This document shows positions 27,044 to 34,145 of a stretch of DNA of 34,145 bases, piece by piece (the first letter of the stretch is position 1; each line of letters opens with the position of its first letter). Origin of the DNA: an uncultured Clostridia bacterium (GTDB taxonomy: Bacteria; Bacillota; Clostridia; Christensenellales; CAG-917); NCBI GenBank assembly GCA_947589635.1, contig CANQCC010000004.1, positions 1 through 34,145 on the forward strand. The letters run 5' to 3'. Under the pieces are notes generated by a model. That model saw nothing but the letters and a program-made list of their open reading frames with translations. It searched no databases and had not been told where the DNA came from. Made by a program: the position numbers and the translations under genes.

Positions 27044-28492
27044 TTATGCTTTCGCGCTTATAAGCTCAAGCGAGAAGGCAAGGCGTCTTAAACTTTCCTT
27101 CTTGCCCAGCGTCGTCGCCATTTCTATTGCGCCGCCCGGGGTCACAGGCGCGCCCGTAAGCGCCACGCGCATCGCAAACATGACTTGCCCCGCCTTCATC
27201 CCCGCCTCTTCGGCGGCAAGGCGTATGCGCTCCTTGACGGCGTCGTCCGTCCAATCGTCGAAGTCCTTCAGCGCGGATATCGCGACTTCCACCGCCCTCT
27301 TCGCGACGGAAAGGTCCACCTTCATCTTCTGATGGGTGTACATATTCAGGTCATATTCGCCAAATTCGCCAAGGAACGCGAGCTTTTGCGGGATCTCGGA
27401 GAGGATGTCCACGCGCGTCTGCATAAGGGAGGCTATCTCCCGCTTGTTGTAGGGCGCGTCGCCGATCGCCTCGTCTATGAAGGGCAGCGCTACGGTGTAA
27501 AATTCGTCCGCGCTCATCGCCTTAAGATACTCGCCGTTTAGCCAGCGCATCTTTTGCTCGTCAAAGATAGAGGCGCTTTTTGATATGCCGTCCGTGTCGA
27601 ACGCCTCCGTCATCTCCTGCATGGTCATCTTTTCGCGGTTGTCCTTGGGGCACCAGCCCAACAGCGCGATATAGTTGACCACCGCTTCGGGCAGATATCC
27701 CTTCTTGATGAAGTCCTCGAAGTTGGCGTCGCCATAGCGCTTGGACAGCTTTCTTGTCGCGTCCTTCATGATAGGCGGCAAGTGCATGTATTTGGGGCGC
27801 TGCCAGCCGAACGCGTCGTATATCAGGTTGTATTTGGGCGTGGAGCTTAAATATTCCGTGCCGCGGATGACGTGCGTTATGCCCATAAGGTGGTCGTCTA
27901 CGACGTTGGCGAAGTTGTAGGTGGGAAGTCCGTCGGATTTCAGCAGCACTCCGTCCTCTATGTCCGCGCTGTCAACGCTGATTTTGCCGAAGACCATATC
28001 TTCGTACTCGCTGACAACGCCCTCGGGCACTTTTTGCCTTATCACGTACGGTTCGCCCGCGGCAAGCCTTGTCGCGACCTCTTCCTCGGACAGATAGCGG
28101 CAGTGCTTGTCGTAGGTGTGCACGCCGTTTTCGTCCTTGAGGCTCTCAAGCCTCTCCTTGTCGCAAAAACAATAGTACGCTCCGCCGCGCCTCACAAGCT
28201 CCTCGGCATACTTTTTGTACAGCGACATGCGCTCCGTCTGCACGTAGGGGCCGTAGCCGCCGTCCTTGTCCGGGCCTTCGTCGTAGGTTATGCCCGCGGT
28301 CTCAAGCGTGCGGTAGACCATCTCCACGGCGCCGTCGACTTTGCGCTCCTGATCGGTGTCCTCTATGCGCAGGATAAACTTGCCGCCGTTCTTTTTGGCG
28401 AAAAGGTAGGCGTAAAGCCCAGTGCGCAGATTGCCTATGTGCATAAAGCCCGTTGGAGAGGGCGCAAATCTTGTTCTTACAGTTTCACTCAT
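27044..28492 (-). CDS. gltX: Glutamyl-tRNA synthetase GltX
   Basis: 482 aa class I synthetase that charges tRNA-Glu (and often tRNA-Gln in Firmicutes lacking GlnRS). HIGH-type motif FAPSPTGFMHIGNLRTGLYAYLF at the N-terminus; GRxxS-type LRIEDTDQER; a CFC...HC zinc-like cluster in the acceptor domain; YNFANVVDDHLMGITHVIRG; KMSKS-type KLSKRYGD; and a C-terminal helical anticodon-binding domain. It overlaps the radC stop by 8 bp, so it is translated as part of the 29643-radC-gltX operon. No T-box leader is seen. Confidence 0.97.
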   Translation of the reverse strand: MSETVRTRFAPSPTGFMHIGNLRTGLYAYLFAKKNGGKFILRIEDTDQERKVDGAVEMVYRTLETAGITYDEGPDKDGGYGPYVQTERMSLYKKYAEELVRRGGAYYCFCDKERLESLKDENGVHTYDKHCRYLSEEEVATRLAAGEPYVIRQKVPEGVVSEYEDMVFGKISVDSADIEDGVLLKSDGLPTYNFANVVDDHLMGITHVIRGTEYLSSTPKYNLIYDAFGWQRPKYMHLPPIMKDATRKLSKRYGDANFEDFIKKGYLPEAVVNYIALLGWCPKDNREKMTMQEMTEAFDTDGISKSASIFDEQKMRWLNGEYLKAMSADEFYTVALPFIDEAIGDAPYNKREIASLMQTRVDILSEIPQKLAFLGEFGEYDLNMYTHQKMKVDLSVAKRAVEVAISALKDFDDWTDDAVKERIRLAAEEAGMKAGQVMFAMRVALTGAPVTPGGAIEMATTLGKKESLRRLAFSLELISAKA

Positions 28493-29219
28493 AGTAGAAT
28501 ATTCCGTCCTTGAGAGTAGATTTTGTCTTGATGATGCGGTTCATCCTGCCGTCCTCCTCGAAGGAATAGTAGTCCGAGCCGCAAAATATGAAGTGGTCCA
28601 GCAGAGCCACGCCTACGTTGGCGAGGGTGTCGAACAGCGTGTATGTAAGTTCCACGTCCGCCTGCGACGGACTTACCCTGCCGCTTGGATGGTTGTGCGC
28701 GAGAAGCACTCCGCTCGCCCTGTTTTTAAGCGCGAAGTCCACTATCGCGCGCACCGTGACCTGCACGGAGTCCCCGCTACCGCTTGAGATTATGTCGCTG
28801 GATATTATCTTTTCGTGCGCGTCAAGCGCCGCCACTACAACTTGCTCGTCGGGTATGCCAAACAACTTGTTGCCCATAAAAAGACGCGCCGCCGCCCTGC
28901 CCTTAAGCTCCGTCCTTTCGGAAGTCCTGTCGTCGAGATATTGCCTGAATACGCCGGGCAAAGAGCTTAAAAACAACGCCGCATTGTGCGTCATGCCGGG
29001 CACCTCCTCAAGGTGCTCCGCGTCGGCGGAGAGCACTCCGGAAAGAGAGCCGAACTCGGCGATCAACCTGTGCGCGATCTCGTTTGTGTCCCTGCGGGGA
29101 ATAAAACTGTACAGCAGATATTCAAGCACTTCGTGGTTTTGAAGAGATTCCACTCCCTGCTTTTTTATTCTGTCGCGCATTCTCTCGCGATGCCCCTCAT
29201 GTATTCCCTTGTCTGCCAT
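28485..29219 (-). CDS. radC: RadC family JAB/MPN-domain protein
   Basis: 244 aa from ATG 29219. The N-terminal helix-hairpin-helix part is ERMRDRIKKQGVESLQNHEVLEYLLYSFIPRRDTN, and the C-terminal JAB metalloprotease-like domain has LLAHNHPSGRVSPSQAD and a downstream HFIF segment. RadC was once tied to DNA repair, a role not upheld; its function remains uncertain. The track start at 29264 is rejected because the ATG at 29219 lies one base after the preceding gene's TGA and homologues start at this point. It is between an unknown gene and gltX in one operon. Confidence 0.93.
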   Translation of the reverse strand: MADKGIHEGHRERMRDRIKKQGVESLQNHEVLEYLLYSFIPRRDTNEIAHRLIAEFGSLSGVLSADAEHLEEVPGMTHNAALFLSSLPGVFRQYLDDRTSERTELKGRAAARLFMGNKLFGIPDEQVVVAALDAHEKIISSDIISSGSGDSVQVTVRAIVDFALKNRASGVLLAHNHPSGRVSPSQADVELTYTLFDTLANVGVALLDHFIFCGSDYYSFEEDGRMNRIIKTKSTLKDGIFYYE

Positions 29220-29220
29220 A

Positions 29221-29643
29221 TCAATTGAAAATCGCGGGATAATCCTTAAACACGCTGTCGTCAAGTTTCACCAGCCTGACCAGCACTTCGAGGGCCTCGT
29301 CCGCGTCGCGAAATCCGCACTGCTTGCCGATTATCTTGTACGCGCCGTACGCGTTGAGAAAATCGTACCAAAAATAACATTCGTCCTGAAGCTGAAAAAT
29401 CTCCAGATAGCTGAAAGATTGATACTTGCTCCAGTTTTTGAGGATGTCTATAAGCGCGGTGACCTCCTCATTGTTGTCATACCTGTCATGAATAAACTTG
29501 AGCATGTACTTTTTGACCTCTTTTGAAAAGGTCATCACGCCCTGTTTTGCGTTTTCTATGTCCTTTACGATAAGCGCTATCTCTTTGTCCGCCCCGTACT
29601 TTTTAAACAGCTTTTGGCATGTGTAAGCGAATGTGTTGGTCAT
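29221..29643 (-). CDS. Conserved-looking cytoplasmic protein of unknown function
   Basis: 140 aa from ATG 29643 (MTNTFAYTCQKLFKKYGAD). I do not recognise the family. It is soluble and probably all-helical, rich in aromatic and charged residues (YLEIFQLQDECYFWYDFLNAYGAY), with a DEALEVLVRLVKLDD tail. The start is fixed by the promoter 6 nt upstream, with no good ribosome site (only AGG). It heads the operon with radC (1-nt gap) and gltX, so its expression is tied to translation or genome maintenance functions, but that is context only. Confidence 0.75.
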   Translation of the reverse strand: MTNTFAYTCQKLFKKYGADKEIALIVKDIENAKQGVMTFSKEVKKYMLKFIHDRYDNNEEVTALIDILKNWSKYQSFSYLEIFQLQDECYFWYDFLNAYGAYKIIGKQCGFRDADEALEVLVRLVKLDDSVFKDYPAIFN

Positions 29644-29649
29644 GCCTAA

Positions 29650-29678
29650 AGTATATCCCAAAATCTCCCATAAATCAA
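29650..29678 (-). promoter_or_regulatory. Promoter of the 29643-radC-gltX operon, predicted leaderless
   Basis: Minus strand TTGATT (29673-29678), exact 17-nt spacer, TATACT (29650-29655); 6 nt then ATG 29643. Confidence 0.75.
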
Positions 29679-29815
29679 GCCGTAGACAATAAATAAGTAT
29701 ATTATTAACCCCATTATCCCCAAAATTGCGCCCAACCTATGCCCTTTACAACCTCGAACTCCCCGAAAAGCCCCTGTAACTCAAGCCCGGACAGTGTTAC
29801 CGTAAATCCGGCGCG

Positions 29816-30541
29816 TCAAGCGCTATGTTCTTGCGAGGTCAAAAAGATGACGACGGCTTGGAAGAGTGTGTAGGCGAGGCGGGCTTGAAAGGCGGGGTCT
29901 ACAAGTTTGGCCTCGTCGAGGGGATTGCTTAAAAAGCCGCACTCGGCGATGATGGCGGGATAGTGGCTGCAGCTGAGGATATATTTTTCGGCGCCGAGGG
30001 CGGAATATTCGCGCCCGCCGAGCTCGACGTTGATGTCGCGGTTGAGTATTTCCTGGGTCAAGTCGGCAAAATCATGGCTGTTGGGATCTGTGGGGTCGAA
30101 GAAGACTTGCGCGCCTCGGCGTGCCGCGGAGGAATAAAAATTCATATGCACGCTTATGACGGCGGCGGGGCGGGCGGAGTTTATGACGTCGCCGCGGTAG
30201 AACATATCGGCGCGTTTTTTGTTGTCCTTTATGCCCGGATAGGAGTGCATGGAGTCGTTTGTGCGCGTAAACACGGCCTTAAATCCGCCGCTTTGAAGGT
30301 ATTCGCCAAGCAGGCGCGCGACTTTCAGGTTGAGGTCGCTCTCTTTTGCCCCGGTGCGCACGCCGATGACTCCGCTGTCCGCGCCGCCGTGTCCCGGGTC
30401 TATGACGACGACGGGCGAGCGAGCGCCGTCTTTTATGGCGGAAGCGATGAGGGGCGCGCCCATTGCAAACGCCGCTATGACGACGGCAAGCGCCGCGCAC
30501 ACCGCCCTGAAAGATAAAACTTTGTTGAATTTTTTGTGCAT
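29816..30541 (-). CDS. cwlD: N-acetylmuramoyl-L-alanine amidase, CwlD-like (Amidase_3)
   Basis: 241 aa, the size of CwlD. An N-terminal signal anchor (AVCAALAVVIAAFAMGAPLIASA) is followed by the zinc amidase domain: VVIDPGHGGADSGVIG (first His ligand), GAKESDLNLKVA (Glu ligand), AVISVHMNFY (second His) and AIIAECGFLSNP (catalytic Glu). It cleaves the lactyl-alanine bond of peptidoglycan outside the membrane. In spore formers CwlD prepares muramic lactam of the cortex; size and the FLSNPLDEAKL end fit CwlD but a vegetative amidase cannot be excluded. Monocistronic, transcribed away from the DnaA-box cluster. No clear ribosome site or promoter. Confidence 0.85.
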   Translation of the reverse strand: MHKKFNKVLSFRAVCAALAVVIAAFAMGAPLIASAIKDGARSPVVVIDPGHGGADSGVIGVRTGAKESDLNLKVARLLGEYLQSGGFKAVFTRTNDSMHSYPGIKDNKKRADMFYRGDVINSARPAAVISVHMNFYSSAARRGAQVFFDPTDPNSHDFADLTQEILNRDINVELGGREYSALGAEKYILSCSHYPAIIAECGFLSNPLDEAKLVDPAFQARLAYTLFQAVVIFLTSQEHSA

Positions 30542-30587
30542 ATTGTTAAGCGTTACAATTTATTCATCGCGGTATAAAAATACGGTT

Positions 30588-30639
30588 TTATCCACCGAGT
30601 TATCCACAAAATCGCCTCAAAATGTGGATAAGTCGGTGG
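30588..30639. promoter_or_regulatory. Cluster of three DnaA boxes in an inverted repeat
   Basis: TTATCCACC (30588-30596), TTATCCACA (30600-30608, consensus) and TGTGGATAA (30623-30631, consensus, reverse). The second and third lie in a 17-bp inverted repeat (30592-30608 / 30623-30639, one mismatch, 14-bp spacer). It sits between divergent cwlD and the PRC-barrel gene, next to an AT-rich stretch at 30541-30590. It could be an origin element or a DnaA-controlled promoter. Confidence 0.7.
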
Positions 30640-30823
30640 AAAACCCCCTCCCGAAGCCGCATGCTTAAGTTGATGAGAGGGGCGTTTGTTTTATGACTGC
30701 GCCGCCTGATTTTCTTAAAATCTTGCGCTTTGCGACAATTTTCGTCTATCTAAACGAACGTTATTTTTTTGCGCCTTTCATAACCGCGCCGGGCTCCGCA
30801 TAAAATTTCGCGAGAGGTGAATT

Positions 30824-31780
30824 ATGACAAGCGTTTCCTTGTGCTCGGGAGTCCCGGTGATAACCGCCGCGGACGGCAAAGAGGTCGGTCGCATAAAAAA
30901 TGTATATTTTGACAAAATATCCAAAAGTTTTGTATATTTCGGCGTTTCGACGGGCGATGATATGGCGCTGCTCCCCGTAAAGAGCCGCGCCGTAAAAGAC
31001 GCGGCGATACTTGCATCGGCGGACGAGCTGCTTCCGTTTGACGAGGGTGCGGTCGCGGATTGCGCGGAGGGACTGCTCGGCATGAGGGTATATACTCTTG
31101 CGGGAGTTTTTAAGGGCGGTATAGCGGACGCGGCGTTTTCAAGCGACGGCAGGCTTGTCAAGCTTGTCCTTCCCGCCTGCGAGGTCTCCCCGAGCGCCAT
31201 AGCGACGATTGGCGACGTCGTCCTGATAAAGACAAGCAAGCCAAAGCGCACAAAACTTCCCCGCCCAAAAGAGGACTACCCTGTGACCATTGAGGAGACT
31301 GCAATCAACGCTTATCCAAACATAGCGCCTGACGGAGTGGGCGCTTCTTCGGCGGTAGACGGCGGCAGAGCGGGTTCTGCTCCTGCCGTGGCGGTTGACG
31401 GAGCGGATGCTACTCCTGCCGTGGCGCTTGGTAGTGTGGGTGTTGTTTCCTCCGCGGTCATTGGCGAGGCGGGCGCCCCTCCCGCCGTGGCGCTTGGCGG
31501 AGACGGGCCGCTGTTTTCGCAAGGCGCACTCAACAGGGTGCTCGGCGAAGAGGCGACCTATGCGCCCTACGACCCGCATATGCCTACGCGAGTCATTTGT
31601 GATTATGACTTTTTGCTTGGGCGCACTCTCGGCGCGGATCTTTATGCCTATTCGGGCGCACTTCTCGCGAAAAAGGGCGGCCTGATAGACGTAGCTACCG
31701 TGGAAAAAGCGCGCGCTCACGGCAAGCTTGTAGACCTCACGCTCAACAGCGTCAAAAAGTCAAACGCGTCTGTTTTATGA
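30824..31780 (+). CDS. PRC-barrel domain protein
   Basis: 318 aa. Residues about 5-75 (GVPVITAADGKEVGRIKNVYFDKISKSFVYFGV) and about 84-140 (LLGMRVYTLAGVFKGGIADAAFSSDGRLVKLV) are two PRC-barrel-like beta domains, as in small Clostridia proteins related to YlmC/YmxH. A low-complexity Ala/Gly/Val linker (about 160-230) with imperfect repeats (APAVAVDGAD, TPAVALGSVG, PPAVALGGDG) joins a C-terminal domain (RVICDYDFLLGRTLGADLYAYSGALLAKKGGLID) that may be a further barrel. No signal peptide. Ribosome site GAGAGGTG 4 nt before the ATG; TAAAAT at 30801 may be the -10. It overlaps the following peptidase gene by 4 bp (ATGA). Confidence 0.75.
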   Translation: MTSVSLCSGVPVITAADGKEVGRIKNVYFDKISKSFVYFGVSTGDDMALLPVKSRAVKDAAILASADELLPFDEGAVADCAEGLLGMRVYTLAGVFKGGIADAAFSSDGRLVKLVLPACEVSPSAIATIGDVVLIKTSKPKRTKLPRPKEDYPVTIEETAINAYPNIAPDGVGASSAVDGGRAGSAPAVAVDGADATPAVALGSVGVVSSAVIGEAGAPPAVALGGDGPLFSQGALNRVLGEEATYAPYDPHMPTRVICDYDFLLGRTLGADLYAYSGALLAKKGGLIDVATVEKARAHGKLVDLTLNSVKKSNASVL

Positions 31781-33204
31781 TATCGCCGCCGCCCCTGAAA
31801 AAGCAAATTTTTATGACGTTTTTTCGCGGAAAAATTTTGAGGGTCTGTCTTCTCGCCCTGCTTTTTGTATGCCTTATATGCGCGCTTTGCGCGTGCAATA
31901 AAAGCTCGCCTCGCCCCGCCTTTTCCCGCCCGATTTACGACATCAACATGACCTACGACGCCAAAGCGCACACAATAGACGCAAAACAGGAAACGCTTAT
32001 CCCACTGCCCGAAAAGATGACGGAAGACTACGTTTTGTTCAATCTGTACGCCAACGCGGTGGCGGGAGTTGGCGACGCAATAAGCGTTTCGGAGGTAAAA
32101 ATCAACAGAAAAAGCGTCGATTTTGAGATTTGCGGCAAAAACAATTGCTTTCTTAAGGCTCCGCTTTTGGGCGCGGATACGCTGTATGATATATGTTTCG
32201 AATATTCCGTAAACGTACCCGAAGAGAAGTTGCGCCTCGGCGTGAGCGACGGCGTCGCCTTGCTCTCGTTTTTCTATCCGTCGGCGGCGAGATACGACGG
32301 CGGTTGGAGAGAGAATGAATATCTTGAGATAGGCGATCCCTTCATGTCCGATTGCGCGGATTTTTATGTGACCCTGAAAACCTCGCCGTCCCTTGTCGCC
32401 GCGGCTTCGGGCGAGGTATCCCCCATGGATGACGAAGACGGCGTCTATGAGATCTGCGCGGAGGGCGTGCGCGATTTTGCGCTTGCGATAGGCGATTTTG
32501 AAGTCGCAAAGAAAGATATCCAAGTGGGCGGAAGAGATGTGGCTATAAAATACTTTTACTCGCAGGACGAGGCTTCGGACGCCACGCTTTCAAGAGCGGC
32601 GAACGCGGTCGAGATGTTTTCGCAGGCGTTTGGGGATTATCCCTACCCCGCCTTTTCGCTTGTGCAGGCGGATATAGACGGCGGAGGCGGCATGGAATAC
32701 GGCGCTTTTGCCACGGTCTCGCCGTCCGAAAGAGAAAATTATCTTGACGCGGTCGCCCATGAGGTAGCCCATCAATGGTGGTACGGCGCCGTCGGCAGCG
32801 ATCAGATAAACAGCGCGTGGCTTGACGAGGGGCTGAGCGAGTTTTGCACATACTATCTGGACTTCCTTGTGGGAGACAGGAAAAAATATGGCGACGCGAT
32901 AAAGGATATTTCAAGGTCATACTCGGCATTTGCGCAGGATCTGCGCCCCGCGGGCTTCTCGGAAAAGATGGAGCGCCCTCTGTCCTCCTTTCTCACGACG
33001 GGAGAGTATGTCGCCGTGGTCTATAAGCAAGGCGCGCTGTTGTTTGATATGATAAGAGGCCTTGTCGGAGACAAAAAGTTTGTCGCGGCAATGCGCGTCT
33101 ATTTTGAGGATAATAAGTTTGGCTTTGCGGACAAAAACTCGCTTATATCCGCCTTCAAAACACAAGGTTATGATATCTCGCCGATCCTGGCAGCGCGATT
33201 ATAA
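31777..33204 (+). CDS. M1-family zinc aminopeptidase-like lipoprotein
   Basis: 475 aa. A signal peptide with lipobox (CLICALCAC) anchors it outside the membrane. An N-terminal beta domain leads to the thermolysin-like core: the GGMEYGAF substrate motif (GAMEN-like), HEVAHQWW with zinc ligands His328 and His332, and the third ligand Glu351 in WLDEGLSEF, the exact HExxH-18x-E spacing of M1. It is shorter than the 850-900 aa housekeeping M1 enzymes and lacks their C-terminal helical domain. The ATG at 31777 overlaps the upstream TGA (ATGA), implying translational coupling; an internal ATG at 31813 has no ribosome site. It probably trims peptides at the cell surface. Confidence 0.9.
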   Translation: MISPPPLKKQIFMTFFRGKILRVCLLALLFVCLICALCACNKSSPRPAFSRPIYDINMTYDAKAHTIDAKQETLIPLPEKMTEDYVLFNLYANAVAGVGDAISVSEVKINRKSVDFEICGKNNCFLKAPLLGADTLYDICFEYSVNVPEEKLRLGVSDGVALLSFFYPSAARYDGGWRENEYLEIGDPFMSDCADFYVTLKTSPSLVAAASGEVSPMDDEDGVYEICAEGVRDFALAIGDFEVAKKDIQVGGRDVAIKYFYSQDEASDATLSRAANAVEMFSQAFGDYPYPAFSLVQADIDGGGGMEYGAFATVSPSERENYLDAVAHEVAHQWWYGAVGSDQINSAWLDEGLSEFCTYYLDFLVGDRKKYGDAIKDISRSYSAFAQDLRPAGFSEKMERPLSSFLTTGEYVAVVYKQGALLFDMIRGLVGDKKFVAAMRVYFEDNKFGFADKNSLISAFKTQGYDISPILAARL

Positions 33205-33479
33205 CGCTTTATCTGCTTCAAACGCCTCGGAAAATATAACCTGCTCAAATATACTCTCTTGAAGTAAAAGGTCGTGTTTTGCCGCATTTTTTGCCCTTAT
33301 GCCGCTTGCGTTAAGGTCAGACCGCGATGTTCAGATGTGAGGTTATGATGATTTGCAAATTCCGGCAATAAGATTATACCTCTTTGCAAAGTCATGACGA
33401 TAGGTTGCTTAATTTTGCCGCTCTCAATCGAGGTTTTAAGCCAAATCATTTATTGAAAAAGCAAAAATATAAAAATCTC
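33205..33479. other. Intergenic region upstream of tRNA-Asn
   Basis: About 275 bp with no gene that I can support. It shows recurring words (TTTTGCCG, TTTGCAAA) and a run-down sequence style like the other intergenic repeats, without a clear period. No clear terminator for the peptidase gene was found. Confidence 0.4.
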
Positions 33480-33509
33480 TTGACAAACGCCGCAAATAGA
33501 TATTATTAT
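33480..33509 (+). promoter_or_regulatory. tRNA-Asn promoter
   Basis: Consensus TTGACA (33480-33485), 18-nt spacer, TATTAT (33504-33509); TATAAT also occurs 3 nt later. The tRNA begins 17 nt downstream. Confidence 0.75.
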
Positions 33510-33526
33510 AATCAAGCATTAAATAT

Positions 33527-33602
33527 GCCTGTTTAGCTCAGTCGGTAGAGCATTCGGCTGTTAACCGAAGTGTCGGGGGTCCGAGTCCCTCAACAGGCGC
33601 CA
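33527..33602 (+). tRNA. tRNA-Asn (anticodon GTT), CCA encoded
   Basis: 76 nt. Acceptor GCCTGTT/AACAGGC (7 bp), D arm GCTC/GAGC, anticodon arm TTCGG-CTGTTAA-CCGAA with GTT, 5-nt variable loop, T arm GGGGG/CCCTC (one G-U), discriminator G and encoded CCA. The T loop reads TCCGAGT instead of TTCGAGT, so the base normally modified to pseudouridine 55 is C. Its 3' 21 bp are repeated 219 bp downstream. Confidence 0.95.
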
Positions 33603-33821
33603 AAAACACAACTATCGTCACTTTATGGGACGATAGTTTGTTTTTTATATACGTTTAAGAGGGACTCGAACGGGCGGATCAGCAAACAATCCGGTGAATT
33701 GTTTGCCCGCCCCGGCGTGATAGCGCAGTGAACGCAACGTCGTGCGGGACGTGTGTCATCCTCTCGTTCGGGCGGGTCGTAAAGCGCCACACAAGCGGAG
33801 CGAGTCCCTCAACAGGCGCCA
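33582..33821 (+). other. tRNA 3'-end direct repeat flanking a 219-bp-offset segment (candidate att remnant)
   Basis: CGAGTCCCTCAACAGGCG, extended by CCA to 21 bp, occurs at 33582-33602 (inside the tRNA) and at 33801-33821. Between them are the terminator, an inverted copy of the T-arm piece (GAGGGACTCGAAC, 33659-33671) and a long hairpin (GCAAACAAT / ATTGTTTGC at 33682-33706, with outer arms GGGCG / CGCCC). No ORF of substance lies inside. Confidence 0.65.
33610..33646 (+). terminator. Terminator following tRNA-Asn
   Basis: AACTATCGTC, 9-nt loop, GACGATAGTT, then TGTTTTTT: a perfect 10-bp stem. Confidence 0.85.
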
Positions 33822-33823
33822 CG

Positions 33824-33855
33824 AAAAACACGTCGTCTTGCGGCGTGTTTTTTTT
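33824..33855 (+). terminator. Second terminator, after the duplicated tRNA 3' end
   Basis: ACACGTCG, loop TCTTG, CGGCGTGT, then TTTTTTT; upstream AAAAA extends the stem. It stands 3 nt after the second tRNA-end copy, as the first does 7 nt after the tRNA. Confidence 0.8.
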
Positions 33856-33949
33856 GCATAAAGTTATATGTGATCTTTTTGAGATAATTTTCTGTTTTGT
33901 AAGTTTGTATTGTGGGCATACCCCTTCGATAACGTTGGATAGAAGGCTA

Positions 33950-34129
33950 TCGGGGTCCCCGCAAAATTGCGTAGCGAGTTTGTGGGGTAATGGATCGGGG
34001 TCCCCGCAAAATTGCGTAGCGAGTTTGTGGGGTAATGAATCGGGGTCCCCGCAAAATTGCGTAGCGAGTTTGTGGGGTAATGGATCGGGGTCCCCATAGA
34101 AAGGAGCGTAGCGAGTTTTATGGGGCACA
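33950..34129. repeat. 45-bp tandem repeat, four hairpin-forming units
   Basis: Units start at 33950, 33995, 34040 and 34085, exact 45-bp steps. The first three are almost identical (one base differs near each unit end); the fourth diverges in the stem but keeps GCGTAGCGAGTTT. Each folds as CCCCGCAAA ... TTTGTGGGG with an inner TTGC-GTA-GCGA stem. In unit 4 the arms become CCCCATA / TATGGGG, still paired. The ORFs crossing it exist because 45 is a multiple of three; they are not genes. Confidence 0.85.
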
Positions 34130-34145
34130 GATCCGCCCTCACTGC

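What the first reader, a model, noticed from the sequence alone, without database searches (positions are those of the whole stretch)
30588..30639. DnaA-box cluster at a switch of gene orientation: possible origin element or DnaA-controlled promoter
Two consensus DnaA boxes and one single-mismatch box lie within 44 bp, two of them inside a 17-bp inverted repeat, next to AT-rich DNA. For about 8 kb to the left every gene is on the minus strand (phosphoesterase, veg, subtilase, gltX, radC, 140-aa gene, cwlD), and to the right every gene is on the plus strand (PRC-barrel, M1 peptidase, tRNA), the leading-strand pattern expected around an origin. A further near-match, TTATCCCCA, is at 29714. Against an origin: dnaA, dnaN, rpmH and gidA are absent. 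A titration site or a DnaA-regulated promoter is the alternative.
Basis: partly seen in the sequence, partly recalled or inferred. Interest (0 to 1): 0.7.

Follow-up and report, generated by a model that had tools for sequence, protein, structure and literature searches.

The report
Conserved DnaA-box array outside the origin
A fixed palindrome of four binding sites for the replication starter protein DnaA, conserved in gut Clostridia of the order Christensenellales, is not the replication origin but a separate DnaA-binding element, probably a control site for DnaA.

Summary
The DnaA boxes are real and not chance (0 of 400 simulated windows give three boxes within 52 bp). A weaker fourth box completes a palindromic array (R1-3bp-R2-14bp-R3-3bp-R4, 30588-30643). 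The array and an adjoining 60-bp AT-rich block are conserved in the family: the array is found in 40 of 43 genomes, the other three being incomplete. It sits upstream of cwlD in 35/35 family genomes with cwlD and in 20/50 other order genomes with cwlD (13 more families).

It is not oriC: in four relatives the GC-skew minimum lies at or near dnaA/dnaN, 13-110 kb from the array (a fifth is too close to tell). It is not simply a cwlD promoter operator: five relatives with no cwlD and no Spo0A match keep the array at the syntenic place; in one genus it lies between convergent genes and is still the best-conserved stretch.

Best reading: a stand-alone, often origin-proximal DnaA-binding control element, comparable in kind to the oriC-external DnaA-box clusters of Bacillus subtilis. 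DnaA binding and the titration/regulation mechanism are inferred, not shown. In some sister families the dyad spacer holds a LexA-box-like palindrome, hinting at SOS input.

The parts
30588..30596 (+). DnaA box R1, TTATCCACC (1 mismatch)
   Evidence: aligned in register in the family
30600..30608 (+). DnaA box R2, TTATCCACA (consensus)
   Evidence: most conserved box in the family (mean 1.82 bits per position)
30609..30622 (.). 14-bp dyad spacer, nearly fixed length, poorly conserved sequence in this family
   Evidence: mean 0.69 bits per position; holds a LexA-like palindrome in some sister families
30623..30631 (-). DnaA box R3, TTATCCACA (consensus)
   Evidence: 1.70 bits per position
30635..30643 (-).
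   Evidence: 1.25 bits per position against 0.26 in the next 40 bp
30528..30587 (.). AT-rich conserved block flanking R1, with the motif TATAAAAAT at 30573-30581
   Evidence: mean 1.04 bits over the inner 50 bp; retained at the same offset in cwlD-less relatives G021, G029, G033 (z 8-10) and G009 (z 6.7), not in G019 except for ATAAAAAT
29816..30541 (-). cwlD-like N-acetylmuramoyl-L-alanine amidase, start 46 bp from R1
   Evidence: Pfam Amidase_3 7e-36; best NCBIfam model TIGR02883 CwlD, 135.8 bits, below its cut-off of 221.55
30824..31780 (+). divergent PRC-barrel gene, syntenic in family f1 but not beside the array in the cwlD-less loci
   Evidence: Pfam PRC 5.9e-7
29221..29661 (-). 146-aa conserved gene of unknown family, syntenic marker that stays near the array when cwlD is lost
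   Evidence: no Pfam hit; beside the array in L307-L310, about 2.2 kb away in L311

Best explanation
A stand-alone cis element, usually one strong copy per genome: a palindromic array of four DnaA boxes with fixed spacing (12, 23, 12 bp between box starts) plus a flanking conserved AT-rich block. DnaA is inferred to bind it cooperatively. Where it could be mapped it lies within about 111 kb of dnaA/dnaN, so it would be duplicated soon after initiation and would change the amount or activity of DnaA available to oriC, delaying re-initiation, in the way proposed for the oriC-external DnaA-box clusters of Bacillus subtilis. Shown here: the boxes, their geometry, selection on them, proximity to dnaA in seven genomes, and independence from cwlD. 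Inferred: DnaA occupancy and the effect on initiation (titration or a change of DnaA state).
For: Not chance. Geometry and sequence conserved while the 40 bp to the right of R4 has diverged. Present in 40 of 43 family genomes; the other three are 72-85% complete and also lack a cwlD match. Strict array pattern found in 51 of 396 order genomes, nearly always at one place, with no hit for the reversed control pattern. Ranks first or second among DnaA-box clusters in all six array-bearing contigs scanned. Array and dnaA on the same contig in seven genomes at about 4 to 111 kb. Retained in five genomes with no cwlD and no Spo0A match; in genus g3 it lies between the 3' ends of the 146-aa gene and a gene whose product reads as lysyl-tRNA synthetase (named by eye, not by a profile search), and the stretch holding AT motif and array is 98% identical in the best 44 columns against 70% for the whole intergenic region. 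In genus g8 the dnaN-upstream boxes read TTGTGCACA and array box R2 of G036 and G038 reads the same, which fits recognition by the same DnaA.
Against: No binding or replication data exist for these mostly uncultured bacteria. Four boxes is a small sink unless binding is highly cooperative or the site alters DnaA. The link to cwlD in 35 of 35 family genomes that have it, and in 20 of 50 others, is not explained by a position-free sink, although a shared conserved gene neighbourhood could explain it. In the window's own genome the distance to the origin is unknown, because array and dnaA are on different contigs. In B. [quoted passage not shown]
Confidence: 0.5

Rival explanations
1. DnaA-regulated promoter: DnaA bound to the array activates or represses cwlD, coupling replication to spore-cortex formation.
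For: Array 45-110 bp upstream of the cwlD match in 35/35 family genomes and upstream of cwlD in 20/50 others; 51 of 80 fetched genome-contig hits lie upstream of cwlD; conservation is stronger on the cwlD side than on the PRC side; cwlD and Spo0A are absent together in genus g3, G009 and G019, so cwlD looks sporulation-linked.
Against: The array, and in four of five cases the AT block, persist without cwlD; in g3 they lie between convergent genes. Distance to cwlD varies between families (33-298 bp).
Confidence: 0.22
2. It is the chromosomal origin, oriC, or its working unwinding site.
For: DnaA boxes next to a conserved AT-rich block; local skew minimum and orientation switch in the window; the same layout (R1-R2-N14-R3) lies directly upstream of dnaA in two f31 genomes; dnaN-upstream boxes are few in some family genomes.
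Against: Skew minima: G040 437.6 kb against array 485.7 kb; G026 117.1 against 59.7; G015 41.4 against 151.3; G029 65.4 against 78.4; G016 74.9 against 78.6, where the offset is too small to discriminate. G025 has no clear minimum. No DnaA-trio-like run at the array, though none upstream of dnaN either.
Confidence: 0.06
3. Another DnaA-dependent role, such as control of DnaA nucleotide state (DARS- or datA-like), segregation of the origin region, or transcription of an unannotated small RNA from the AT block.
For: Fixed geometry and an additional conserved block suggest an ordered nucleoprotein complex rather than a plain sink; a LexA-box-like palindrome at the dyad in some sister families suggests regulated occupancy.
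Against: No direct evidence; no Rfam match other than the tRNA in window 28000-34145.
Confidence: 0.18
4. The palindrome works as an RNA hairpin or terminator, not as DNA boxes.
For: The window copy folds very well as RNA (-32.2 kcal/mol, z -7.5); it lies between convergent genes in g3.
Against: Across 42 copies the outer helix is paired in only 59.8% of cells and covariation does not exceed shuffles; substitutions keep boxes box-like rather than paired, for example R3 TGTGGACAA opposite R2 TTATCCACA.
Confidence: 0.04

Closest known systems
oriC-external (oriC-proximal) DnaA-box clusters of Bacillus subtilis (Okumura et al. 2012, read here only through PMC5295017 and PMC13220808)
   Same: DnaA-box cluster outside oriC in a Bacillota chromosome, tending to lie near the origin.
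   Different: One strong copy per genome instead of six clusters; fixed four-box palindrome with an AT block, conserved in place across a family and recurring upstream of cwlD in 13 other families. The original paper was not held, so box geometry and locations of the B. subtilis clusters were not compared.
datA of Escherichia coli
   Same: Non-coding locus with several DnaA boxes outside oriC, one copy.
   Different: datA is about 1 kb with five boxes and needs IHF (PMC5295017); no IHF-like dependence was looked for here and the sequences were not compared.
Bipartite oriC of Bacillus and Clostridia (C. difficile oriC1/oriC2, PMC7561715)
   Same: DnaA boxes plus AT-rich DNA; the same box layout occurs upstream of dnaA in f31 genomes.
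   Different: Not flanking dnaA and not at the skew minimum; no DnaA-trio-like run found.

Membership tests
Bacterial oriC | Located at the GC-skew minimum | tested here: not met
   Four relatives with the minimum 13-110 kb from the array; a fifth (G016) only about 4 kb away, not discriminating; G025 without a clear minimum. For the window genome itself only the local profile is available.
Bacterial oriC | Next to dnaA or dnaN (usual in Bacillota) | tested here: not met
   dnaA and dnaN are on another contig in the window genome; about 4-111 kb away in seven relatives.
Bacterial oriC | DnaA-trio beside the boxes | tested here: inconclusive
   No run of five or more trio-like triplets within 150 bp of the array in seven genomes, but none upstream of dnaN either.
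oriC-external DnaA-box cluster | Cluster of DnaA boxes beyond chance | tested here: met
   0 of 400 simulations.
oriC-external DnaA-box cluster | Lies outside oriC | tested here: met
   (in relatives).
oriC-external DnaA-box cluster | Bound by DnaA in the cell | not testable with these tools
   Needs ChIP-seq or DNA-binding assays.
oriC-external DnaA-box cluster | Loss changes initiation timing | not testable with these tools
   Needs deletion in a cultured strain.
datA | IHF site and IHF-dependent DnaA-ATP hydrolysis | not tested
   No search for an IHF/HU site was made.
CwlD (TIGR02883 equivalog) | Score above the curated cut-off | tested here: not met
   135.8 bits against 221.55, though the best-scoring model; so called cwlD-like.

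The most novel reading that the evidence does not exclude
An order-wide DnaA control locus of Christensenellales: an ordered DnaA complex on a palindromic array with an AT-rich arm that tunes initiation, and that in some sister families has a LexA operator nested on its dyad axis, so that DNA damage could alter DnaA occupancy directly.
Probability: 0.25. Interest if true: 0.75.

Novelty: new variant of a known kind. Interest (0 to 1): 0.5.

Why it matters
How Bacillota limit DnaA without the E. coli control loci is unsettled (PMC13220808 states that datA and DARS are absent in B. subtilis and that regulators of its DnaA nucleotide balance are unknown). A single, fixed, deeply conserved DnaA array outside the origin gives one defined target for testing this in Clostridia. 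Natural losses of cwlD separate the array from its neighbouring gene and so tell the two explanations apart without an experiment.

Tried and rejected
Origin at the window: rejected by skew in relatives. Chance cluster: rejected. RNA hairpin or terminator: disfavoured despite a strong fold. Known RNA family: only the tRNA. Plain cwlD operator: not sufficient, because of cwlD-less relatives. The B. subtilis cluster paper was not held. Literature searches linking DnaA boxes with cwlD, with titration sites in Clostridia, or with LexA in Clostridia gave nothing relevant. Promoter elements in the AT block were looked at by eye and not resolved. The pattern scan outside the order shows the same box layout near parB, gyrB, dnaA and other genes in unrelated bacteria, so the layout alone is not specific to this element; the syntenic position and flank are.

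Full report
What is there. The three boxes reported are in place, and a fourth, weaker one (30635-30643, minus strand) completes a palindrome: R1 30588+, R2 30600+, R3 30623-, R4 30635-, with 3-bp gaps inside each pair and 14 bp at the dyad. Simulated windows never gave such a cluster (0 of 400). The window is the whole contig C4 of a 1.41-Mb, 141-contig genome (80.9% complete); dnaA and dnaN lie on contig C12.

Who has it. In relatives the boxes keep their spacing while the sequence to the right of R4 has diverged (R2 1.82, R3 1.70, R1 1.48, R4 1.25 bits per position; right flank 0.26; spacer 0.69). R1 and R4 vary more than R2 and R3, and one locus (L035) has a spacer 1 bp shorter. A sequence-only model of the array finds it in 40 of 43 genomes of the family; the three misses (G005, G012, G028; 83, 85 and 72% complete) also have no cwlD match, so the locus may simply be unassembled. 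Comparing coordinates, the array is directly upstream of cwlD in all 35 family genomes with a cwlD match and in 20 of the 50 other order genomes with one, in 13 further families. The model was trained on copies chosen next to cwlD, and the match table was cut, so these fractions lean towards cwlD neighbours but also miss weak matches. A strict pattern that takes no account of cwlD hits 51 of 396 order genomes, with no hit for the reversed control, and 51 of 80 fetched hits in genome contigs are upstream of cwlD. The rest lie near dnaA, parB, gyrB and various genes, many in other groups, plus a few loci cut off before cwlD. Records bear names such as Christensenella sp. UBA1260 and Candidatus Ornithoclostridium faecavium; NCBI places the latter in Christensenellales.

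Not the origin. Cumulative skew minima: G040 437.6 kb (array 485.7), G026 117.1 (59.7), G015 41.4 (151.3), G029 65.4 (78.4), all at or within a few kb of dnaA/dnaN; G016 74.9 (78.6), where array and dnaA are only about 4 kb apart and the test cannot separate them; G025 has no clear minimum. Contigs were examined, not closed chromosomes (G026:C2 for its first 500 kb). The window's own skew switch has only about 4 kb on its right side; it is compatible with proximity to the origin, not proof of it.

Not just a cwlD operator. Five family genomes have no cwlD match and no Spo0A match (G009, G019, G021, G029, G033) yet keep the array. Their contigs run through the site: a gene reading as lysS on one side and the 146-aa gene on the other, beyond two further genes in G019. 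In genus g3 (G021, G029, G033) the array is between two 3' ends. There the intergenic region is 70% identical overall but 98% in the best 44 columns, within AT block and array. The 60-bp block left of R1 matches the family profile at the same offset in the three g3 genomes (z 8-10) and in G009 (6.7), but not in G019, which keeps only ATAAAAAT. Some of these assemblies are incomplete (G009 62%), but absence of cwlD at the locus itself is seen directly.

Recognition by DnaA is inferred from box sequence. Supporting it, genus g8 has TTGTGCACA boxes upstream of dnaN and the same variant in array box R2 of G036 and G038. In several f5 and f19 genomes the spacer holds RAACNNNNGTTY centred on or near the dyad (perfect GAACATATGTTC in L188), and lexA upstream regions of two f19 genomes carry the same motif (L299, L301), while those of the f5 genomes checked show only an imperfect form or none. 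This is suggestive of a LexA operator; it is absent from the window family.

Interpretation. The element behaves as a conserved, stand-alone DnaA-binding site near, but outside, the origin. By analogy with B. subtilis, where removal of six oriC-external clusters causes early initiation (PMC5295017, PMC13220808), titration or local control of DnaA is the most likely role; that step is not shown. In spore-formers DnaA at the array may also affect cwlD. I file it as a new variant of a known kind: what sets it apart is the fixed four-box palindrome with AT arm, a single strong copy, and a conserved place. Whether the B. subtilis clusters share any of this geometry could not be checked.

Noticed in passing
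L188, L193-L196, L198, L199, L215, L218, L227, L229-L231, L234, L242, L243, L254, L257, L275, L276, L284 (array spacers): The 14-bp dyad spacer of the DnaA array carries a RAACNNNNGTTY-like palindrome resembling a Bacillota LexA box (perfect GAACATATGTTC in L188).
   Followed up: partly
G000:C12 (L011) and contigs of G015, G016, G025, G026, G040, G029: Gene order and strand of dnaA, dnaN, recF, parAB, rsmG and gyrBA are shuffled between close relatives, unlike the usual conserved dnaA-dnaN-recF order.
   Followed up: partly
G040:C1 433.7-433.9 kb and G026:C2 115.1-115.2 kb: Genus g8 dnaN-upstream regions carry TTGTGCACA-type boxes instead of TTATCCACA.
   Followed up: partly
window 33949-34118: 45-bp tandem repeat, 3.7 copies, at the right end of the contig; possibly why the assembly breaks there.
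   Followed up: no
window 29714-29722: Lone near-match TTATCCCCA between the 146-aa gene and cwlD; conservation not tested.
   Followed up: no
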